Assembly (NCBI GenBank): GCA_007279775.1
Contig: QYPD01000003.1
Location: 1-8,466 of the forward strand
Reading direction: 5' to 3'
Length of the DNA stretch: 8,466 nucleotides
DNA from: Spirochaetia bacterium
Lineage (GTDB): Bacteria; Patescibacteriota; Minisyncoccia; UBA6257; UBA9933
Part shown: positions 2 to 8,117 of the stretch, one piece after another
How the letters are laid out: each line of letters opens with the position of its first letter
Numbering within the stretch: position 1 is the first letter of the stretch
Position numbers and translations under genes: made by a program
Notes under the pieces: model-generated
The model's input: the letters and a program-made list of their open reading frames with translations, nothing else
Database searches by the model: none
Told to the model about the DNA's origin: nothing

Positions 2-3000
2 TATAAAACAATGGACGTTGATTACATGGAATCGGTTTTGCGAGTTTTTAAAGATTTGTACGATAAAAACTTGATTTATAAAGGTTATAAGCCGATGCAT
101 ATTTGTCCTCGATGCGAAACAACACTTTCAAATTTTGAAGTTACGCAAAATTATAAAGATATTGAGGATTCATCGGTGACTGTTGAATTTGGATTAGAAG
201 GTGAGAAAAATACTTATGTGCTCGCTTGGACAACTACACCATGGACATTGCCTGGTAATGTGGCGCTCGCGATAAATCCAAATGTTAAATATGTAAAAGT
301 AGAAGGTCAAATTCCCGGTAATGCATATATCCTTGCCCAATCTCGCGTAGAATCTGTTTTTGGCAAAGAACATAAAATTGTCCGAACTGTAAATACTCGC
401 GATCTTATCGGTAAAAAATACGAGCCGCTTTTCAATTATTACTCCAAAAACAAAAAACTTGAGAATCACGACAATGGCTGGAAAATTTACGCCGGAGATT
501 TTGTCTCGACTGATGAAGGCACCGGAATCGTGCATATCGCACCCGCTTTCGGCGCGGATGATATGACTTTGGGCAAAAAACATAAAATGCCTTTTGTGCA
601 GCACATTTCAATGGATGGTAGATTCAAGCCTGAAGTAAAAGATTTTGCCGGATTGCCAACAAAGCCCAAGGGCGATCATCAATCATCCGACAGAAAAATT
701 ATCGAGCTTTTGGAAAAACATGACAAACTTTTTAAATCCGAAAAAATTACCCATTCGTATCCTCATTGTTGGCGGTGTGAAACTCCGCTTTTAAATTACG
801 CGGCGTCTTCGTGGTTCGTTAATGTGACGGCGATTAAAAACGCGCTTATTAAAAACAACCAAAAAATCAGTTGGTTGCCGGCGCACGTGAAAGACGGACG
901 TTTCGGCCAGTGGCTGAAAGATGCGCGGGATTGGGCGATTTCCAGAAGCCGTTTTTGGGGTTCGCCGATTCCGGTTTGGGAATGCAAAAAATGCGGAAAA
1001 TTAAAAATTATCGGCTCGGTTGAAGAAATAAAGAAAAATTCGGAAACTTCCGGTAATAAATATTTTGTTATGCGGCATGGACAAGCCGAGAGCAATCTAC
1101 TTGGCGTTGAAAGCTCCGATTACAAAAATAACCATCATTTAACAGACAAGGGGAAAAAAGAAGCTGCAGCGTCGTTTAAAAAGCTTAAAAACATTGATAT
1201 GATTTTTTCTTCGGATTTTGTCCGGACAAGAGAAACCGCGGAAATAGCGGTAAAACAATTGGGAATAAGAAAGATATTTTACGATAAAAGATTAAGGGAG
1301 GTTGATGCCGGCATTTTAAATAATAGGCCGACAAGGGAATACGGAAAATATTTTTCTTCTAATGAAGAAAAATTTATCAAACCGGCTCCGAAGGGCGAAA
1401 ATTTGACCGATTTGAAAAACAGGATGTCGGAATTTATTTATGATATTGAAGAAAAATATTCGGGCAAAAATATTTTGATTATTAGCCATGAATATCCGAT
1501 TTGGCTTTTGTTTGCCGGAGCTGAAGGGGCGAATGCCAAAAAAACGATTGAAATGAAAGGCAAAAAAGAAGATTTTATAAAAACCGGAGAAATAAAAAAC
1601 CTAAAATTCATTTCGTTGCCGCACAATCAAAATTTTGAACTTGATTTGCACAGGCCGTACATCGATAAGGTAGAATTTTCTTGCGGTTGCGGCGGCAAAA
1701 TGAAAAGAATTGAAGACGTTTTTGATTGTTGGTTTGAATCCGGTTCAATGCCGTACGGCCAATCGCATTATCCATTTTCAACGCCGAAGAAAAATTTTTC
1801 TCCGGTGCCAGCGGAATTTATCGCCGAAGGAATGGACCAAACGCGTGGTTGGTTTTACACACTGCTTGTTCTTTCAACGGCTTTATTTAATAAACCGGCG
1901 TATAAAAATGTTGTTATTAACGGGATTGTATTGGCGGAAAATGGCCAAAAAATGAGCAAGCGCCTGAAAAATTATCCCGACCCGATGGAACTTGTTTCAA
2001 AATACGGCGCGGACAGCTTGAGACTTTATTTGCTTTCTTCACCGGTGGTGGCGGGCGAGAATTTGAATTTTTCCGAAAGAGGTGTTGATGAAATTTATAA
2101 AAAAATGATTTTACGGTTGTGGAATACTTACAAGTTTTATGAACTTTACGCGGATAGTTCAAAAATACAAGATACAAAATACAAAATACAAAATACTAAT
2201 GTTTTAGACGTTTGGATTATTGCCCGGTTGGAACAATTAAAACAAGAAGTTTCAAATTCGCTTGAAAAATACGAGCTTGATAAAGCGGTCAGGCCACTCG
2301 GTAATTTTATTGATGATTTTTCAACCTGGTATATTCGGCGTTCGCGCGAAAGGTTTAAATCGGAAAGCAACGATAAACTCGCCGCGATAGAAACAACGAA
2401 ATACGTTTTGTTGGAGTTCTCAAAAATTCTTGCGCCGTTTGCGCCTTTTACGGCGGAAGCGGTTTATAAAAATCTCAAATCCCTGCCTTGCCGGCAGGCA
2501 GGTCAAATCTCAAATTTCAAATTTTGCGAATCGGTTCATTTGGAAAAGTGGCCGAGTTTTGACAAAAAATTGATAGATAAAAAATTACTGGATTCGATGG
2601 TGGAAATTAGAAGAGTCGTTTCTCTTGCTTTGGAATTAAGAACCAAGGCAGGAATTAAAGTAAGGCAGCCACTCGCTGTGCTCAAAATCAAAAATCAAAA
2701 ATCAAAAATCAAAAATAATAACGAATTACTACAGATTCTTGCGGATGAAATAAATGTTAAAAAAGTCATTTTTGACTCTAAGATAAAGCAGGAAATCGAA
2801 TTAGATGTGAAAATCACGCCGGAGTTGAAAGCGGAGGGGTTATTGAGGGAAGCGGCAAGAGCAATACAAGATTTAAGAAAAGAAGCAGGTTTTTCGCCTA
2901 AAGACAGGATTGATGTGTGGATGGAAGTTCCTGCGGAAATCCGTTCGGCGATAGAAAAAAACATAGGCGAATTCAAAGAAAAAATCTGCGCTCAAAACGT

Positions 3001-3088
3001 TAATTTTGGCCGGACCGATAAGTTTGACGCGGAGACTGAAACTAAAATGGATAATTCGCAAATTTGGGCGGGAATTAAAAAGATTTAA
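2..3088 (+). CDS. ileS: Isoleucyl-tRNA synthetase, 5'-truncated, with an internal histidine-phosphatase domain
   Basis: Class I aminoacyl-tRNA synthetase that charges tRNA-Ile with isoleucine in the cytoplasm. The frame is open to the window edge and reads Y-K-T before the Met at nt 11, matching the internal family stretch NAYKTMD. That Met is therefore internal, and about 140-150 residues with the HIGH motif lie upstream. Residues below are numbered from nt 11. The CP1 editing domain runs about 60-250 (WTTTPWTLPGN at 73, GTGIVHIAPAFGADD ending at 184) and is flanked by zinc pairs C32/C35 and C253/C256. A second ribbon has C325/C328 and C558/C560, and a phosphatase domain (about 345-541) sits between these pairs. 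DLHRP follows at 545, DCWFESGSMPYGQ after it, and KMSKR at 647-651. The anticodon-binding domain starts near LDVWIIARL. A C-terminal region common to long IleRS forms follows. Three 7-nt repeat arrays and a palindrome add linker residues in the last third. Assignment is very secure; the true start is outside the window. Confidence 0.97.
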   Translation, partial: YKTMDVDYMESVLRVFKDLYDKNLIYKGYKPMHICPRCETTLSNFEVTQNYKDIEDSSVTVEFGLEGEKNTYVLAWTTTPWTLPGNVALAINPNVKYVKVEGQIPGNAYILAQSRVESVFGKEHKIVRTVNTRDLIGKKYEPLFNYYSKNKKLENHDNGWKIYAGDFVSTDEGTGIVHIAPAFGADDMTLGKKHKMPFVQHISMDGRFKPEVKDFAGLPTKPKGDHQSSDRKIIELLEKHDKLFKSEKITHSYPHCWRCETPLLNYAASSWFVNVTAIKNALIKNNQKISWLPAHVKDGRFGQWLKDARDWAISRSRFWGSPIPVWECKKCGKLKIIGSVEEIKKNSETSGNKYFVMRHGQAESNLLGVESSDYKNNHHLTDKGKKEAAASFKKLKNIDMIFSSDFVRTRETAEIAVKQLGIRKIFYDKRLREVDAGILNNRPTREYGKYFSSNEEKFIKPAPKGENLTDLKNRMSEFIYDIEEKYSGKNILIISHEYPIWLLFAGAEGANAKKTIEMKGKKEDFIKTGEIKNLKFISLPHNQNFELDLHRPYIDKVEFSCGCGGKMKRIEDVFDCWFESGSMPYGQSHYPFSTPKKNFSPVPAEFIAEGMDQTRGWFYTLLVLSTALFNKPAYKNVVINGIVLAENGQKMSKRLKNYPDPMELVSKYGADSLRLYLLSSPVVAGENLNFSERGVDEIYKKMILRLWNTYKFYELYADSSKIQDTKYKIQNTNVLDVWIIARLEQLKQEVSNSLEKYELDKAVRPLGNFIDDFSTWYIRRSRERFKSESNDKLAAIETTKYVLLEFSKILAPFAPFTAEAVYKNLKSLPCRQAGQISNFKFCESVHLEKWPSFDKKLIDKKLLDSMVEIRRVVSLALELRTKAGIKVRQPLAVLKIKNQKSKIKNNNELLQILADEINVKKVIFDSKIKQEIELDVKITPELKAEGLLREAARAIQDLRKEAGFSPKDRIDVWMEVPAEIRSAIEKNIGEFKEKICAQNVNFGRTDKFDAETETKMDNSQIWAGIKKI
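1043..1633 (+). other. Histidine-phosphatase (PGM-like) domain inserted in IleRS
   Basis: About 195 residues of the IleRS reading frame match the histidine phosphatase superfamily and not any IleRS domain. Visible motifs (numbered from nt 11): FVMRHGQAESN with the RHG signature R355-H356-G357, where H356 would be the phospho-accepting His; SSDFVRTRETAEIA with R405; REVDAG at 429-434, the usual acidic site E-x-D-x-G; and IISHEYPIW with the second catalytic His at 493. All core catalytic residues are therefore present and the domain is probably active. It begins just after IGSVEEI and ends just before DLHRPYID, two segments that are nearly adjacent in ordinary IleRS. There is no stop or frameshift at either edge, so it is a true in-frame insertion. 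The substrate cannot be told from sequence. The boundaries are good to about 10 residues. Confidence 0.9.
2163..2197 (+). repeat. Heptamer array A in ileS (unit AAATACA, five copies)
   Basis: Five consecutive 7-nt units: AAATACA in copies 1, 3 and 4, AGATACA in copy 2 and AAATACT in copy 5. It encodes SKIQDTKYKIQNTN, at the junction between the catalytic core (ending NTYKFYELYAD) and the anticodon-binding domain (starting LDVWIIARL), a stretch of variable length in IleRS. The period of 7 is not a multiple of 3, so the repeat is a DNA property and the peptide only repeats every 7 residues. Confidence 0.85.
2470..2525 (+). repeat. Heptamer array B in ileS (unit AAATCTC), split by a palindrome
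   Basis: Copies of AAATCTC flank a 21-nt palindrome at 2482-2502. With the palindrome removed, the rest reads as AAATCTC three times, then AAATTTC and AAATTTT: five units, 35 nt. As it stands, an 11-nt direct repeat AAATCTCAAAT lies on each side (2470-2480 and 2505-2515). The tract encodes the loop between EAVYKNL and ESVHLEKWP, which in ordinary IleRS joins directly. Confidence 0.85.
2482..2502 (+). repeat. 21-nt GC-rich palindrome inserted in array B
   Basis: The left arm CCTGCC-T-TGCC pairs with the right arm GGCA-GGCAGG, with a single unpaired T and no loop (centre GCCGGC). It is the most GC-rich short stretch of the gene. It is translated as part of SLPCRQAGQ. None of its six reading frames contains a stop codon, and its length is exactly seven codons. 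It is not a terminator: there is no T-tract after it and it lies inside an essential reading frame. By analogy with Rickettsia palindromic elements, which also sit in-frame in genes, it may be a small dispersed element. Only one copy is visible here. Confidence 0.85.
2685..2719 (+). repeat. Heptamer array C in ileS (unit AAATCAA, five copies)
   Basis: Four perfect AAATCAA units followed by AAATAAT. It encodes KIKNQKSKIKNNN, between KVRQPLAVL and ELLQILADEINVKKV in the C-terminal region, where family members normally have only a few residues. It is the most regular array in the window, with no mismatch in four units. Confidence 0.87.
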
Positions 3089-3091
3089 ATT

Positions 3092-3844
3092 ATGCCCGAG
3101 ACTTCAATCATAATAAGGACTAGGAATGAAGAAAAGTGGATAGGAATTGTTTTGGAAAAAATCTTTAATCAAACATATAAAAATTTTGAAGTTATTTTGG
3201 TTGATTCCGGCTCAAATGATAAAACTTTAGAAATCGCGAAAAAATTTCCAACAAAAATTTTGGAAATACCATTTAAAGACTTTTCTTTCCCTTATGCTCT
3301 TAATTTTGGCATTAAAAATTCATCGGCCGCTAAATATGTTGTTATAATAAGCGCCCATTCGGCGCCTATTTCTGATACATGGCTTGAGGACGGATTAAAT
3401 AATTTCAAAAAATACGATAAGATAATGGGCGTGTACGGATTTTTGAAAGCCTTGCCCGATTCAAGTATTTGGGACAAAATTTTTATGAATTGGCGAGGCG
3501 CAATTAGGCGTTTGATAAACAGAGGTAATAGCGTCAGAATATTAATAAATTCGGCCAAGCTCGGCGTTATGGGTTTTACGAACGCGATTATTTTGAAAGA
3601 ACTTTGGGATAAAAGAAATTTTAACGAGAATTATGGAGCTGGTGGCGAAGACGGAGAATGGGCAAGTTTTTGGTTCGGCCGCGGCTACGAGGCGATAAAG
3701 GATGAAAAATTTACGGTGCTTCATTCGCACAATTTAAATTTAATTGGATGGCTAAGACAAATTAGATATTGGAAATCTACCGGTATCCCCAAGCAGTTCA
3801 ATCACAAAAATTTCTCTTTTAGAAAATCTAAAATGTTTGAATAA
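3092..3844 (+). CDS. Family 2 glycosyltransferase
   Basis: A 250-residue GT-A-fold glycosyltransferase, probably moving a sugar from a nucleotide-sugar onto a cell-surface glycan or lipid-linked acceptor. The N-terminal nucleotide-binding part shows SIIIRTRNEE (5-14) and VDSGSNDKT (37-45), typical of GT2. Where many members carry a D-x-D metal site, this one has ISAHSAP (86-92), a form seen in rhamnosyltransferase-like GT2 proteins. GGEDGEWA (184-191) fits the acidic motif that holds the catalytic base. There is no signal peptide or clear membrane helix, so it is likely cytoplasmic or membrane-associated. It starts 3 nt after the ileS stop, with no recognisable Shine-Dalgarno, and ends 6 nt before the glycerate kinase, so co-transcription is likely. 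Donor and acceptor cannot be read from the sequence. No repeat arrays occur in this gene. Confidence 0.88.
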   Translation: MPETSIIIRTRNEEKWIGIVLEKIFNQTYKNFEVILVDSGSNDKTLEIAKKFPTKILEIPFKDFSFPYALNFGIKNSSAAKYVVIISAHSAPISDTWLEDGLNNFKKYDKIMGVYGFLKALPDSSIWDKIFMNWRGAIRRLINRGNSVRILINSAKLGVMGFTNAIILKELWDKRNFNENYGAGGEDGEWASFWFGRGYEAIKDEKFTVLHSHNLNLIGWLRQIRYWKSTGIPKQFNHKNFSFRKSKMFE

Positions 3845-3850
3845 ATCAAT

Positions 3851-5158
3851 ATGATAATCACTAATTTTAAAAATTTGGCAAAAAGTCCGCTTCGCAAAAA
3901 AGCACTTCAAATTGTTGAAGCGGGATATGAAGCGATAAATATAGAAGAAGCGGTTAAAAATAAAATAGAAATAAATAAAAATAAACTTTTAATTTCCAAT
4001 TTTACAATTGATTTAAATAAATACCGGAAAATTTTTATCATTGGGATTGGCAAAGGTTCGGCTTTGGCAAGCGCAACTTTGGCAAAAATTTTGGGTAAAA
4101 AATTAGATAGATGTATCGCCTTGGATATTAGTAAGCCGCCCCTAAATTCTAAATTCTTAATTCTTAATTCTGAATTCTTAGTGGGTACGCATCCGTTTCC
4201 ATCAATTCAAAACATTAAAGCCACGAAAAAAATAATTGAAATGGTGGAAAAAGCCGGGAAAGACGACTTGATAATTTCTTTTATTTGCGGGGGAGGTTCG
4301 GCTTTACTTTGCGGTTCGGAAAAAGAATTAAAAGCTTCACGTGAAATTTTCAGCAAATTAACTAACGCCGGAGCCAATATAATTGAACTTAACACAATAA
4401 GAAAGCATTTATCGGAAGTAAAAGGCGGCGGCTTGACGAAGATCGCTTACCCGGCAACAATGATTTCACTTGTTGTTTCCGATGTTTTTAAAAACGATTT
4501 ATCTATGGTTGCTTCCGGTCCGACAATCTATGACAAAACGACAAAAAAAGATGCGGAAAAGATTTTAAGTAAATTTAATACGAAATACAAAATACTAAAT
4601 ATTAAATACCAGCTAAACGAGACGCCGAAGGACAAAAAATATTTCAAAAAAGTTAAAAATATTTTATTTATTTCCAATTGCGAGCCGATTACAGCAATGG
4701 CGAAAAAAGCTAAAAAATTGGGATTTTCGCCTAAAATTTACTCTTACAATTTGAAAGGAGAAGCGAGAAACATTTTGCTTCCATTAATTGAAGCTGGGAA
4801 AAGCGGAGCGGCGGTGATTTCTGGAGGGGAAACGACTATCGTTTTGGGCGAAAACCCAGGAAAAGGAGGAAGAAATATGGAGGCTGTATTGGGGTCAATT
4901 ACTAATCCCCGATGCCCAATTCCAAATAATTTGATAACAATTTCTTTTGCCAGCGACGGCAAGGATAACACCGAAGCCGCGGGAGCCATTGGCGATATTT
5001 TGACTATAAATAAGGCTGAAAAATTAAAATTGGACTTTGAAAAATATCTCAAAATACATAACACTTTTAATTTTTTCAAAAAAACCGGCGATTTGATTTT
5101 CGCGGACAAGAAAACTTTTAATGTCTCGGATTTAATGCTGGTTCTTAAAGAAAAATGA
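3851..5158 (+). CDS. Glycerate 2-kinase (DUF4147/MOFRL family)
   Basis: This 435-residue enzyme is of the GckA/TtuD type and phosphorylates D-glycerate to 2-phosphoglycerate with ATP. The N-terminal DUF4147-like region (about 10-245) holds IIGIGKGSALASATLA, where K68 fits the conserved lysine near the active site, then GTHPFPS, SFICGGGSALLCGS and SEVKGGGLTKIAYPA, followed by SLVVSDVFKNDLSMVASGPT. The C-terminal MOFRL region (about 320-430) holds GENPGKGGRNMEA (333-345; R341 matches a conserved arginine), FASDGKDNTEAAGAIGD (S368-D369-G370) and a degenerate TGDLIFADKKTFNVSDL ending. Length is near the family norm. Two heptamer arrays (D, E) lengthen loops at about residues 98-110 and 242-254. 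It overlaps the Nudix gene by ATGA (5155-5158), which suggests translational coupling. The gene-symbol choice between gckA and ttuD is uncertain, so none is given. Confidence 0.92.
   Translation: MIITNFKNLAKSPLRKKALQIVEAGYEAINIEEAVKNKIEINKNKLLISNFTIDLNKYRKIFIIGIGKGSALASATLAKILGKKLDRCIALDISKPPLNSKFLILNSEFLVGTHPFPSIQNIKATKKIIEMVEKAGKDDLIISFICGGGSALLCGSEKELKASREIFSKLTNAGANIIELNTIRKHLSEVKGGGLTKIAYPATMISLVVSDVFKNDLSMVASGPTIYDKTTKKDAEKILSKFNTKYKILNIKYQLNETPKDKKYFKKVKNILFISNCEPITAMAKKAKKLGFSPKIYSYNLKGEARNILLPLIEAGKSGAAVISGGETTIVLGENPGKGGRNMEAVLGSITNPRCPIPNNLITISFASDGKDNTEAAGAIGDILTINKAEKLKLDFEKYLKIHNTFNFFKKTGDLIFADKKTFNVSDLMLVLKEK
4144..4178 (+). repeat. Heptamer array D in glycerate kinase (unit WAATTCT, five copies)
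   Basis: The units are AAATTCT twice, TAATTCT twice and GAATTCT once. It encodes LNSKFLILNSEFL, just before VGTHPFPS, a loop of variable length in the family. A T as first base makes TAA. It is present in copies 3 and 4, where TAA is out of frame, and absent in copies 2 and 5 (A and G), where it would be an in-frame stop. Confidence 0.85.
4576..4610 (+). repeat. Heptamer array E in glycerate kinase (unit AAATACN, five copies)
   Basis: The units are TAATACG, AAATACA, AAATACT, AAATATT and AAATACC. The core is the same as array A in ileS, but more degenerate. It encodes NTKYKILNIKYQ, ahead of LNETPKDKKYF, in the variable segment between the two halves of the enzyme. Confidence 0.75.
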
Positions 5159-5643
5159 AATTATTAAAAACTATAAAATTTGATGAAGTGAATCCGGAAG
5201 AATTAGAAAAATATGAATTTCGGCAGACGGCGAGAGCGATCGTTTTCGATAAAGAGGGCAAGATTGCCCTACTTTTTGTTTCTAAAAAGGGCTATCACAA
5301 GTTGCCTGGAGGAGGGATTGAAAAAGGCGAAAGCATAGAAGATGCGTTAAAAAGGGAATGTCTTGAGGAAATTGGATGTGAAATAAAAATAACGGGTGAA
5401 ATCGGAACGATAATCGAACATCGGAAAGCATTTAAAATAAACCAAGAATCATTTTGTTATTTGGCCAAAGTTGTCGGAGAAAAAGGCGAACCGGCGTTTA
5501 TGGATGATGAAATAGAAGAAGGATTTTTAGCTCTGTGGGTAAGCCTCGACGAGGCGATAAAAATTTTGGAAACGGATAAGTCGGATGATTATCAAGGTAA
5601 ATTTATCAAAATAAGAGATTTAGCGTTTTTAAGAGAAATATAG
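5155..5643 (+). CDS. Nudix hydrolase
   Basis: A 162-residue single-domain Nudix protein. The Nudix box G-x5-E-x7-REUxEExGU is complete from G53 to C75: G53, E59, R67-E68, E71-E72 and G74, with the two hydrophobic U positions both filled by cysteine (C69, C75). The metal-binding glutamates are all present, so hydrolysis of a nucleoside-diphosphate-linked substrate is expected, though the substrate is unknown. A beta-rich N-terminal half (QTARAIVFDKEGKIALLFVSK) leads into PGGGIEKGE. The C-terminus (EEGFLALWVSLDEAIKIL) is typical of MutT/ADP-ribose-pyrophosphatase-like members. The start overlaps the glycerate kinase stop as ATGA, with only a weak AAAG upstream. A housekeeping or sugar-nucleotide role is possible given the neighbouring glycosyltransferase, but this is inference. 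Confidence 0.93.
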   Translation: MKLLKTIKFDEVNPEELEKYEFRQTARAIVFDKEGKIALLFVSKKGYHKLPGGGIEKGESIEDALKRECLEEIGCEIKITGEIGTIIEHRKAFKINQESFCYLAKVVGEKGEPAFMDDEIEEGFLALWVSLDEAIKILETDKSDDYQGKFIKIRDLAFLREI

Positions 5644-5675
5644 AGATTTATGGGATTTTATAGTAGAATTAGTCT
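5644..5675 (+). promoter_or_regulatory. Possible promoter for the PEP synthase gene (leaderless)
   Basis: This 32-nt gap is the only intergenic space of any size in the window. It contains TATAGT (5659-5664) running into TAGAAT (5664-5669), either of which could be a -10 hexamer. The second would place the transcript start at about the ATG itself, giving a leaderless mRNA, and no Shine-Dalgarno precedes this ATG. There is no convincing -35 at the right spacing, so the call is weak. Simple AT-richness could explain it, and read-through from the Nudix gene is equally possible. Confidence 0.25.
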
Positions 5676-8117
5676 ATGAATAAAAAACAAGATTTCATTA
5701 AACAATATAAAGAAGTCGGGATAAAAAACGTTTTGGAAGTTGGCGGAAAAAACGGCTCGCTCGGGGAGATGATTCAATATTTAAAGCCAAAAGGCTTGAA
5801 TGTTCCGGATGGTTTCGCGATAACAGCAGAAGCATATAGATACTTTCTTAAAAAATCCGTAATCCGTAATTCGCAATCCAGAATTATCAATTTGGAGACC
5901 TTTATAAAAAAAACATTAGCCGGTTTGAATACGAAAAATCTTCAAGATTTGGCTAAGCGCGGGAAAGCGGTTAGAGAAACGATAAAAAGTGTTGAGTTGC
6001 CAAAGGAGCTTGAAGAAGAAATAGTTATAAATTACCAAAATCTGGAAAAAGAATACGGTAAAAACTCGGACGTGGCGGTTCGTACCAGCGGCACAACCGA
6101 AGACGCGCCCGATGCTTCATTTGCCGGCCAATACGAGACCTTTTTGAACATTCGGGGCGCTAAGGAGGTTTTGGAGGCGGTAAAAGCGTCTTTCGCTTCT
6201 TTATTCACGGATAGGGCGATTTCTTACAGGGCGGATAAGGGATTCGATTATTCCAAAATGGCGCTTTCAGTGGGCGTGCAAAAAATGGTGCGTTCCGATT
6301 TGGGATGCTCGGGAATAATGTTCACGCTTGATACGGAATCGGGATTTCCGGACGTGGTTTTGATAAGCGGCGCCTGGGGCCTGGGAGAAATGGTTGTACA
6401 AGGAGAAGTAACGCCGGATGAATTTTTGGTTTTTAAAAAAACCGGCGCAATTATTGACAAAAGGCTGGGTGACAAAACCCGCAAGATGATTTATTCTACG
6501 GGCCAGGGCATTAAGAAAACAAAAGTCGTTGATACGAATAAAGAAGAAAGGGAAAAATTTGTTTTAAGCGAAGCGGAAATTTTGAAATTGGCGAAATGGG
6601 GAATGATAATAGAAAAACATTATACGGCTTTACGAAAAAAATGGACGCCAATGGACATGGAATGGGCAAAAGACGGCAAAACAGGCGAACTTTTTATTGT
6701 TCAGGCGAGGCCGGAAACCGTACATAGTCGCAGAGATTTTTCAAAAATAAAAGAGTATGAGCTTGCGAAAAGCGACAAAATGAAAAAGATTATCGTAAAG
6801 GGCGCCTCTGTGGGCAATAAAATTGCCATCGGCAAGGCACGGATAATTTTAGACGCCAAACAAATAGGCCAGTTTAAGGCAGGCGAAGTTTTGGTAACAG
6901 ATATGACAGACCCGGATTGGGAACCGATTATGAAAATTGCTTCGGCGATTGTTACGGATAAGGGCGGACGCACTTCTCACGCGGCCATAGTCTCCCGGGA
7001 ACTGGGCATTCCTTGCGTTGTAGGCTCAGGTAGCGCCACGAGAAAGATAAAAACAGGCCAGACTGTTACCGTAGATACAACGTCCAGCGAGGGCGTGGTT
7101 TACGATGGCGCTTTGAAATTTAAAGTGATAGAACATAACATAAAAAAATTCCCGAAGCCCAAGACCAAAATAATGATGAATATTGCCACTTCGGACACGG
7201 CTTTTGAAAAATCGCTTTTGCCGAATGATGGCGTTGGGCTTGCGAGGGAAGAGTTCATTATCGCTTCGGATATTGGAATACATCCGATGGCATTGATAAA
7301 CTACGGAAGACTTAAAGACTTAAAGCTTAAAGCTCAAATAGATAAAAAAACAATCGGGTATGAAGATAAAAAACAATTTTACGTTGATAAGCTCGCTTAT
7401 GGAATCGCGAAAATCGCCGCGGCATTTTATCCAAAACAAGTTATTGTCAGATTCTCCGATTTTAAAACAAATGAATACCGCACTTTAATCGGCGGAGAAA
7501 TTTATGAACCGCAAGAAGAAAATCCAATGATTGGCTGGCGCGGCGCGTCCCGTTATTACCATCCGAATTTTGCTCCGGCTTTCATATTGGAACTTGAAGC
7601 CATAAAAAAAGTCCGCGAAAAAATGAAATTGGATAATGTGGCGGTAATGGTGCCGTTTTGCCGGACAGTGGAAGAAGGAAAGAAGGTGGTAAAAATAATA
7701 AAATCCGCATTAATCAGTCAAAATCCGCATAAATCCGCGTTAAAAATATATATGATGTGCGAAATTCCTTCAAATGTTGTTTTGGCGGACGAGTTTTTGG
7801 ATGTTTTTGACGGCATGAGCATTGGCTCAAATGATTTAACACAATTGACTGTTGGTATAGACCGCGATGCTTCGGAATTGGTCCGCGATGTGGCAAACGA
7901 AAAAGACGAATCGGTTAAAAGGCTGATTTCCGAAGTTATCAAAAAATGCCGCAAGCGCAAGAAATATATCGGCATTTGCGGCCAAGCGCCTTCTGATTAT
8001 CCGGATTTCGCCGAGTTTTTGGTAGAACAGGGCATTGAAAGTATGTCTTTAAACCCGGACACGGTGATAAAAACGACTTTGAAGGTTTACGAGAAAGAGA
8101 AGAAGCTAAAGAAATAA
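5676..8117 (+). CDS. ppsA: Phosphoenolpyruvate synthase
   Basis: An 813-residue pyruvate, water dikinase: ATP + pyruvate + water gives AMP + phosphoenolpyruvate + phosphate. This is the gluconeogenic bypass of pyruvate kinase. The N-terminal ATP-binding domain (about 15-355) has GGKNGSLGEM from residue 23, AVRTSGTTEDAPDASFAGQ around R136, and QARPETVHS at 343-351. The phosphohistidine swivel domain (about 375-465) has GGRTSHAAIVSRELGIP with catalytic H435. The C-terminal PEP/pyruvate barrel (about 480-805) has VGLAREEFI, RFSDFKTNEYRTLIGGE (R592), MVPFCRTVEEG, MCEIPSN (E696), GSNDLTQLT and GICGQAPSD with catalytic C768. All hallmark residues are present, so it should be active. Length is close to the 790-residue norm, with the excess in loops lengthened by repeat arrays F and G. 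It follows the Nudix gene by 32 nt and ends 2 nt before the SGNH hydrolase. Confidence 0.96.
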   Translation: MNKKQDFIKQYKEVGIKNVLEVGGKNGSLGEMIQYLKPKGLNVPDGFAITAEAYRYFLKKSVIRNSQSRIINLETFIKKTLAGLNTKNLQDLAKRGKAVRETIKSVELPKELEEEIVINYQNLEKEYGKNSDVAVRTSGTTEDAPDASFAGQYETFLNIRGAKEVLEAVKASFASLFTDRAISYRADKGFDYSKMALSVGVQKMVRSDLGCSGIMFTLDTESGFPDVVLISGAWGLGEMVVQGEVTPDEFLVFKKTGAIIDKRLGDKTRKMIYSTGQGIKKTKVVDTNKEEREKFVLSEAEILKLAKWGMIIEKHYTALRKKWTPMDMEWAKDGKTGELFIVQARPETVHSRRDFSKIKEYELAKSDKMKKIIVKGASVGNKIAIGKARIILDAKQIGQFKAGEVLVTDMTDPDWEPIMKIASAIVTDKGGRTSHAAIVSRELGIPCVVGSGSATRKIKTGQTVTVDTTSSEGVVYDGALKFKVIEHNIKKFPKPKTKIMMNIATSDTAFEKSLLPNDGVGLAREEFIIASDIGIHPMALINYGRLKDLKLKAQIDKKTIGYEDKKQFYVDKLAYGIAKIAAAFYPKQVIVRFSDFKTNEYRTLIGGEIYEPQEENPMIGWRGASRYYHPNFAPAFILELEAIKKVREKMKLDNVAVMVPFCRTVEEGKKVVKIIKSALISQNPHKSALKIYMMCEIPSNVVLADEFLDVFDGMSIGSNDLTQLTVGIDRDASELVRDVANEKDESVKRLISEVIKKCRKRKKYIGICGQAPSDYPDFAEFLVEQGIESMSLNPDTVIKTTLKVYEKEKKLKK
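5853..5887 (+). repeat. Heptamer array F in ppsA (unit WAATCCG, about five copies)
   Basis: The units are AAATCCG, TAATCCG, TAATTCG, CAATCCA and GAATTAT, decaying toward the 3' end. It encodes KSVIRNSQSRII, in the variable stretch after AEAYRYFLK in the N-terminal domain. The two slots where TAA would be in frame (5853, 5874) carry A and C, while the two out-of-frame slots (5860, 5867) carry T. Confidence 0.75.
7701..7740 (+). repeat. Decamer array G in ppsA (unit AAATCCGCAT, four copies)
   Basis: Four 10-nt units: AAATCCGCAT, the divergent TAATCAGTCA, AAATCCGCAT and AAATCCGCGT. The first seven bases match the heptamer of array F, as if three bases had been added to it. It encodes KSALISQNPHKSAL, between VEEGKKVVKII and KIYMMCEIPSN, a surface segment of variable length in PEP synthases. 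Two perfect copies plus one with a single substitution make chance unlikely. Confidence 0.78.

What the first reader, a model, noticed from the sequence alone, without database searches (positions are those of the whole stretch)
2163..5887. Six intragenic arrays of five heptamers sharing the form WAATNNN
Arrays at 2163-2197, 2470-2525 (minus the palindrome), 2685-2719, 4144-4178, 4576-4610 and 5853-5887 all have period 7, about five units (35 nt) and a unit of W-AAT-three variable bases (ACA, CTC, CAA, TCT, ACN, CCG). The triplet differs between arrays but is largely constant within one. They start at all three codon positions, so the constraint is on DNA, not protein. All lie on the same strand relative to the genes, in what appear to be variable loops of three conserved enzymes, and are absent from the glycosyltransferase, the Nudix gene and the phosphatase domain. 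Cyanobacterial STRR sequences are also degenerate heptamer repeats, but as I recall they are mainly intergenic. A constant copy number with variable sequence suggests a specific generating process rather than random slippage.
Basis: partly seen in the sequence, partly recalled or inferred. Interest (0 to 1): 0.75.

Follow-up and report, generated by a model that had tools for sequence, protein, structure and literature searches.

The report
Swappable seven-letter repeats overwriting enzyme loops
In this tiny-genome bacterium, short variable stretches of three household enzymes are encoded by DNA blocks of about five seven-letter repeats; related species often carry different repeats at the same spots, so the blocks were likely copied in ready-made rather than grown one repeat at a time.

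Summary
All six tracts are there, with period 7 and about five units. They belong to a genome-wide population: 34 tracts in 210 kb of this genome, 0 in shuffles, other periods 0-6 except the harmonic 14. In 1.24 Mb from six Patescibacteria genomes, tract length peaks at 31-33 nt, unlike control periods. The WAAT frame is only a tendency: 89 of 189 arrays have it, and AAT is hardly better conserved inside arrays. Arrays also lie between genes, where some form convergent pairs that fold into hairpins.

New here: family orthologues carry period-7 arrays in the same loops with other units (IleRS site 1: 10 of 17 genomes, 8 units; glycerate-kinase loop 1: 12 of 21, 10 units); at three of six sites the loop is no longer than without an array. 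A congeneric genome differs at 13 of 14 compared sites. Because 7 is not a multiple of 3, an array in an essential gene cannot grow unit by unit. I favour one-step copying-in of a preformed block. The agent is unknown; a REP-type HUH transposase co-occurs with array-rich genomes but does not sit beside arrays.

The parts
2162..2197 (+). heptamer array AAAATAC x5 in IleRS (site 1)
   Evidence: TRF; arrays here in 10 of 17 family genomes incl. the own one, 8 consensus units
2470..2524 (+). heptamer array AAATCTC x5 in IleRS (site 2), split by a 21-nt palindrome
   Evidence: unsplit period-7 arrays in 3 of 17 genomes at this site (the split window row counts there as without)
2482..2502 (+). GC-rich palindrome CCTGCCTTGCCGGCAGGCAGG, a clean 21-nt in-frame insertion in the array
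   Evidence: removal restores the period; 24 related hits (up to 2 mismatches) at 15 places in the own genome, control 0
2684..2719 (+). heptamer array AAAATCA x4.7 in IleRS (site 3)
   Evidence: TRF; arrays in 11 of 17 genomes, 8 consensus units, same median loop length with and without
4142..4178 (+). heptamer array TTAATTC/TAAATTC x5 in the DUF4147/MOFRL glycerate kinase (loop 1); the unit TGAATTC sits where TTAATTC would give an in-frame TAA
   Evidence: TRF; sequence; arrays in 12 of 21 genomes, 10 consensus units
4576..4610 (+). heptamer array AAATACN x4.7 in glycerate kinase (loop 2)
   Evidence: TRF; 2 of 20 genomes
5853..5887 (+). degenerate heptamer array AATCCGT-type in PEP synthase (N-terminal loop)
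   Evidence: TRF; 2 of 20 genomes; 10 residues longer than the 29-residue loop of 79 of 120 homologues
7307..7338 (+). weaker tract, period 8 passing into 7 (CTTAAAG), in PEP synthase; not in the finding
   Evidence: TRF
2..3088 (+). isoleucyl-tRNA synthetase, 5' end off the contig, with an inserted histidine-phosphatase domain
   Evidence: Pfam; PDB matches
3851..5158 (+). DUF4147/MOFRL glycerate kinase
   Evidence: Pfam; PDB 1x3l, 2b8n
5676..8117 (+). phosphoenolpyruvate synthase (pyruvate, water dikinase)
   Evidence: Pfam; names

Best explanation
The six tracts are single members of a genome-wide population of roughly 35-nt, five-unit heptamer arrays that were likely copied into tolerant coding loops as preformed blocks, in one in-frame step that would partly overwrite the old sequence, and that are likely swapped for blocks of other units on the time scale of species. 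Shown: genome-wide abundance, dominance of period 7, a length peak near five units, arrays with different units at the same place in relatives, and a net loop length change well below 35 nt. Inferred: the single step (7 is not a multiple of 3, so one-unit steps break the frame of an essential enzyme) and patch-like copying of an array of intragenomic or foreign origin. Between genes, pairs of such blocks in convergent order fold into long hairpins and some multi-unit sequences recur at several loci, so those blocks probably do spread by copying. The agent of copying is not identified.
For: Period 7 against other lags and shuffles: 34 tracts in 210,029 bp, 0 in two kinds of shuffle; 8-21 per 100 kb in six genomes against 1 tract in 198 kb of 16 non-Patescibacteria loci (those are GC-richer). 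Length peak at 31-33 nt (80 tracts) with 22, 19 and 33 in the bins from 19, 22 and 25 nt, while five control lags are highest in the bins from 19 to 25. Same place, different unit, one row a genome, own genome included: arrays in 10 of 17 (8 consensus units), 3 of 17 (3), 11 of 17 (8), 12 of 21 (10), 2 of 20 (2), 2 of 20 (2) at the six sites; median loop with/without array 90/90, 90/75, 111/111, 66/72, 69/63, 109.5/87 nt, so -6 to +22.5 nt against a 35-nt array. In solved homologues the glycerate-kinase loop 1 aligns with gaps of two (1x3l) and two plus one (2b8n) residues. Congener G198: of 14 compared sites 1 has nearly the same unit, 6 have arrays of another unit, 7 have an array in one genome only; IleRS adds one same and one one-sided site. 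Degenerate tracts of 21 nt or more shared at different loci: 10 of 3,294 within-genome pairs, 11 of 1,716 G000-G198 pairs, 2 of 12,755 other pairs.
Against: No donor-recipient pair was caught; for genic arrays no shared multi-unit tract was traced to a donor. Unit classes recur within a genome (0.023-0.075 of pairs in five genomes, 0 among the 7 arrays of G061) hardly more than between near relatives (0.020-0.024), so unit preference could come from composition. At three of six sites arrays lengthen the loop, as a plain insertion would. Several units counted as different are one base apart, which could be in-place drift. Near-perfect arrays also fit local expansion. 41 tracts of 67 nt or more form a long tail. 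In G137 lags 8 and 9 are also raised (10 and 15 against 32 at lag 7).
Confidence: 0.47

Rival explanations
1. Ordinary simple-sequence slippage: the polymerase slips by seven bases, arrays expand locally in AT-rich tolerant sequence and decay by mutation; five units is the balance of gain and loss.
For: Heptamer repeats are over-represented in many bacteria and slippage by the polymerase footprint has been proposed (PMC4692102, passages and discussion, citing earlier work). No MutS_V match in 41 of 41 genomes searched, 11 of 14 controls positive. AAT is not a selected core. Many arrays are near-perfect; a long tail of 41 tracts of 67 nt or more exists.
Against: Peaked length distribution; change of the whole unit at a site between congeners; equal median loop length at IleRS sites 1 and 3 with and without array; out-of-frame intermediates in essential genes; MutS is missing in array-poor genomes too.
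Confidence: 0.29
2. REPIN-like mobile DNA: the intergenic inverted array pairs are the mobile unit, moved as single-stranded hairpins by a REP-associated HUH (Y1) transposase; genic arrays are solo arms.
For: 19 convergent, 11 direct, 4 divergent neighbouring array pairs within 150 bp; five elements of about 120 nt fold with z -4.3 to -6.7, 0 of 200 shuffles as stable. RAYT-like genes in 12 of 18 array-rich against 0 of 33 array-poor genomes of the order and 26 of 40 against 8 of 40 in the phylum; Fisher 1e-7 and 9e-5. The palindrome sits in the window array as an insertion without target duplication, as recalled for IS200/IS605-type insertion.
Against: RAYT-like genes are flanked by GC-rich palindromes, not by heptamer arrays (array-like tract within 500 nt in 2 of 19, one of them mostly the palindrome). 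6 of 18 and 14 of 40 array-rich genomes lack the gene; 8 of 40 poor ones have it. Genomes are related, so the p-values are inflated, and I picked the rich and poor sets from the tables. Any inverted array pair would fold.
Confidence: 0.13
3. The arrays are binding sites for a DNA- or RNA-binding protein and are kept by selection in both genes and intergenic space.
For: Fixed pitch and preferred length; convergent pairs; in four loci read by eye the intergenic element runs from about the stop codon to about the next start codon.
Against: Units differ between sites and relatives; the AAT core is hardly conserved above the rest; presence or absence flips between congeners at 7 of 14 sites; 67 of 200 genomes of the order have no match to the AAT pattern.
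Confidence: 0.07
4. The repetition is a protein-level matter: lysine-rich loops converge on the same residues and the DNA period follows.
For: IleRS site 3 and glycerate-kinase loop 1 repeat LKIKN/KLEIRN-like motifs.
Against: Codon-order shuffles remove the period; unrelated peptides carry equally periodic DNA at the same place; arrays occur between genes.
Confidence: 0.03

Closest known systems
Heptameric GGGAATC / GGGGA(C/T)T repeats of Xanthomonas and Nostoc (PMC4692102)
   Same: Dispersed degenerate heptamer arrays, a preferred copy number (four there), convergent inverted pairs, sequence and length variation between close relatives.
   Different: There G-rich, one unit type per genome studied, 89-93% intergenic in Xanthomonas; here AT-rich, many units per genome, 83 of 175 inside ORFs by my heuristic, some in essential enzymes.
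Cyanobacterial STRR heptamers (mentioned in a PMC4692102 passage; otherwise recalled) and Beggiatoaceae TAACTGA repeats (PMC4679880)
   Same: Heptamer direct repeats of a few copies, some just before start codons; peptide versions in some ORFs.
   Different: One or a few fixed units, mostly intergenic or at protein ends; here the unit is free and the position often internal.
REPINs and their RAYT transposases (PMC3116915, PMC6006769)
   Same: Short inverted doublets forming hairpins; RAYT-like HUH genes co-occur in these genomes.
   Different: REP sequences flank their RAYT gene; heptamer arrays are not beside the RAYT-like genes.
Rickettsia palindromic elements (via PMC10969869 passages) and intragenic enterobacterial repeat units (PMC2759123 abstract)
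   Same: Small repeats kept in frame inside household genes; the window palindrome is of this sort.
   Different: Those are palindromic or MITE-like elements of about 100-170 bp; the arrays are direct tandem repeats of about 35 nt that change loop length little.

Membership tests
Bacterial heptameric simple-sequence repeats | tandem units of 7 nt above chance and above other periods | tested here: met
   lags 8 and 9 also raised in G137
Bacterial heptameric simple-sequence repeats | copy-number change by slippage | not testable with these tools
   one genome per species; no strain series
STRR / Xanthomonas-type repeats | mainly intergenic | tested here: not met
   83 genic, 46 edge, 46 intergenic of 175 (ORF heuristic)
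Xanthomonas-type repeats | convergent inverted pairs | tested here: met
   19 of 34 close neighbours convergent
Xanthomonas-type repeats | G-tracts able to form quadruplexes | tested here: not met
   most frequent unit classes such as AAAATAC, AAATTCT, AAAATTG; quadruplex formation itself not modelled
REPIN | inverted doublet forming a hairpin | tested here: met
   for intergenic elements only; the window arrays are single
REPIN | same repeat flanks a RAYT gene | tested here: not met
   palindromes, not arrays, flank the 19 RAYT-like ORFs looked at
REPIN | RAYT gene in the genome | tested here: inconclusive
   12 of 18 and 26 of 40 array-rich genomes; present in the window's genome
Rickettsia palindromic elements | palindromic repeat in frame within ORFs | tested here: not met
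   arrays are direct repeats; two of six fold at 0 kcal/mol; the 21-nt palindrome does fit
Phase-variable contingency loci | copy number switches the reading frame | tested here: inconclusive
   window frames intact, genes are household enzymes; no strain data

The most novel reading that the evidence does not exclude
A hitherto undescribed kind of mobile DNA: a five-heptamer, about 35-bp block, free in sequence but fixed in pitch and length, that is pasted over tolerant loops of essential proteins and exchanged in register between sites, with inverted pairs as the spreading form and a REP-type HUH transposase or short-patch recombination as the engine.
Probability: 0.24. Interest if true: 0.85.

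Novelty: new variant of a known kind. Interest (0 to 1): 0.6.

Why it matters
If blocks are copied in rather than grown, some loop sequences of Patescibacteria proteins are set by DNA turnover, not by selection on residues, and change as a whole between sister species. That gives a natural experiment on loop tolerance in essential enzymes, warns against reading such loops as functional insertions or using them in trees, and makes the old question of why bacteria favour heptamers testable.

Tried and rejected
AAT as a selected core: rejected by a test that fixes the register on the first two units, although AAT (85) and AAA (77) are by far the commonest triplets repeated five times at period 7, others at most 14. 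MutS loss as the cause: no match in 41 of 41, rich and poor alike. PolY: 3 of 18 rich, 3 of 23 poor. Palindromes preferring arrays as targets: 1 of 218 GC-rich palindromes inside an array (its stem threshold of 8 misses the window case; the glycerate kinase of G027, L085, is a second example read by eye). Rfam: no match in five sources. AlphaFold of the glycerate kinase: mean pLDDT 51, not used, so 'loop' rests on alignments only. Papers: the listings (capped lists) showed no paper on heptamer arrays in Patescibacteria; short-patch double illegitimate recombination is recalled, and the search for it listed nothing relevant. In one search I dropped one antisense-ORF duplicate and the reciprocal rows before counting 14 sites. 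One search counted some genes twice where two loci cover one gene; one search recounts with one row a genome, and its numbers are used.

Full report
What is there. The window is a whole contig (G000:C23) of a 427,610-bp, 65% complete assembly. Some homologues are named Candidatus Wolfebacteria, Paceibacterota or Patescibacteria (names as given by sources). The genes are IleRS with an inserted histidine-phosphatase domain, a family-2 glycosyltransferase, a DUF4147/MOFRL glycerate kinase, a Nudix protein, a PEP synthase and the start of a GDSL lipase. All six tracts are confirmed, and the one split by a palindrome becomes a continuous five-unit array when exactly 21 nt are left out. A seventh, weaker tract lies at 7307-7338.

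More than chance. In a sample of the genome taken without regard to matches (contigs 1-20 of 45, 210,029 bp) 34 lag-7 tracts reach score 16, against 0 in a Markov shuffle and 0 in a local triplet shuffle; other lags from 3 to 18 give 0-6, except the harmonic 14 with 14. Samples of G137, G145, G003 and G061 and of G198 show the same, 8-21 per 100 kb, with lags 8 and 9 also raised in G137 (10 and 15). Sixteen loci from other phyla gave 1 tract in 198 kb, and seven other Patescibacteria loci 1 in 84 kb (the former are GC-richer). The AAT form of the pattern has matches in 133 of 200 genomes of the order and 149 of 286 of the phylum; the others have none, and in some genomes the reversed control matches as often or more. 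A large published survey finds no enrichment of short tandem repeats in bacteria on average (PMC12699852, passages).

Copy number. Pooling 1,235,381 bp, period-7 tracts by length (bins of 3 nt from 19) count 22, 19, 33, 44, 80, 42, 21, 18, 9, and then 1-9 a bin, with 41 in the last, open bin from 67 nt (inverted pairs and long arrays run together there); the lags 5, 8, 10, 11 and 13 are highest between 19 and 25 nt and fall off, with 13 of lag 8 in the open bin. I take the mode of 31-33 nt as a five-unit array trimmed at its edges. Of 189 arrays, 89 have AAT in at least 80% of units, 23 partly, 77 not. With the register fixed on the first two units, later units keep AAT at 0.78 and other positions at 0.75, so WAAT looks like a compositional tendency.

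Genes and strands. By an ORF heuristic 83 of 175 arrays in five genomes lie inside ORFs, 46 at edges and 46 between genes. Of 65 genic arrays (score 16 or more, at most 60 nt), 43 have a consensus unit without a stop on the sense strand; 26 are stop-free on the sense strand only, 7 on the antisense strand only. In the window, the one deviating unit at 4142-4178 (TGAATTC) stands exactly where TTAATTC would place TAA in frame.

Same place, other unit. With the family's orthologues, one row a genome and the own genome included, counting an array only if the stretch scores 14 or more and at most 2 of 500 codon shuffles reach it, arrays are present at IleRS site 1 in 10 of 17 (8 consensus units), site 2 in 3 of 17 (3; the palindrome-split window row counts as without), site 3 in 11 of 17 (8), glycerate-kinase loop 1 in 12 of 21 (10) and loop 2 in 2 of 20 (2), and the PEP-synthase loop in 2 of 20 (2). 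Some of these units are one base apart; others, such as AAAATAC, AACGACT, AAGCATC and AAATTCC at IleRS site 1, are not. Median stretch with and without array: 90/90, 90/75, 111/111, 66/72, 69/63, 109.5/87 nt. So the median change is -6 to +22.5 nt, never the full 35; three sites show no gain, three do. The window's own PEP-synthase loop is 10 residues longer than the 29-residue loop of 79 of 120 homologues. Glycerate-kinase loop 1 aligns to the solved homologues with gaps of two (1x3l) and two plus one (2b8n) residues. One relative (L087) has a period-8 array there, and one (L085) a palindrome within the array.

Turnover. Between samples of G000 and the congeneric G198 (172 ORF pairs, median identity 83%), 14 array-bearing sites could be anchored: 1 has nearly the same unit, 6 carry arrays of another unit, 7 reach the threshold in one genome only; length differences, array minus no array, at the one-sided sites are +12, -3, -9, +9, +69 (poorly anchored), +12 and 0 nt. 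IleRS, split in G198, adds site 1 (same unit) and site 2 (one-sided).

Intergenic relatives. Close neighbouring AAT-type arrays are convergent in 19, direct in 11 and divergent in 4 cases. Eight such elements align over 134 columns; five folded as RNA give z -4.3 to -6.7 with 0 of 200 shuffles as stable, though any inverted array pair would fold. In L016, L019, L026 and L029, read by eye, they fill about the whole gap between a stop and the next start codon. Degenerate tracts of 21 nt or more are shared by 10 of 3,294 within-genome pairs, 11 of 1,716 G000-G198 pairs and 2 of 12,755 others, which suggests copying.

Mechanism. Seven is not a multiple of three, so in a gene that must stay in frame an array cannot pass through two, three and four units one at a time. 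Together with the length peak, the change of whole units and the small net length change, I infer a one-step copying-in of a preformed block. Short-patch illegitimate recombination is a candidate process (recalled). Slippage remains the main rival and offers the only published idea on the choice of seven that I saw.

A lead. RAYT-like Y1 proteins (HxH motif, ORFs of 224-291 aa) were found with PF01797 in 12 of 18 array-rich genomes and, as a strong short IS200-type hit, in 1 of 23 array-poor ones. With a model of 13 of them: 12 of 18 against 0 of 33 and, in other families of the phylum, 26 of 40 against 8 of 40. Within family f1 the median pattern count is 26 with and 9 without the gene (13 and 9 genomes, p = 0.04); genomes of 0.7-1.1 Mb give 22 of 34 against 6 of 30. 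I chose rich and poor sets from the tables, and taxa are not independent. Against a direct role: of 19 such ORFs 10 have a palindrome ending within 100 nt after the stop and seven carry one near codons 55-61, but arrays are not beside them, and in the stretches held their palindromes are few elsewhere.

Papers seen: PMC4692102 (passages, two sections), PMC4679880 (abstract, one section), PMC12699852, PMC10969869 and PMC6006769 (passages), PMC2759123 and PMC3116915 (abstracts). The 2007 survey of repeats and the STRR papers are known here only through these and from memory.

Noticed in passing
window 2-3088, residues about 355-515: A histidine-phosphatase domain (PF00300) is inserted in the catalytic part of IleRS; several family orthologues align over it.
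   Followed up: no
L244-L262: RAYT-like transposase genes in these Patescibacteria are flanked by near-perfect palindromes, and seven of 19 carry a palindrome inside their own ORF near codons 55-61.
   Followed up: partly
L080 and L248: The palindrome of a RAYT-like gene of G121 (AAGGACAT..ATGTCCTT) also occurs in the glycerate-kinase locus of the same genome, where loop 2 encodes RTSDV.
   Followed up: partly
41 genomes of the order: No MutS_V match in any of 41 genomes, while 11 of 14 control genomes have one.
   Followed up: no
PEP synthase homologues P0158-P0173: Several homologues are 1211-1216 aa long and carry PF14528, which I recall as a LAGLIDADG endonuclease domain, so probably an intein.
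   Followed up: no
G000:C22:6517-6600: A stretch 96% identical to the first 28 residues of the window's IleRS lies on another contig, so the contigs probably overlap or adjoin there.
   Followed up: no
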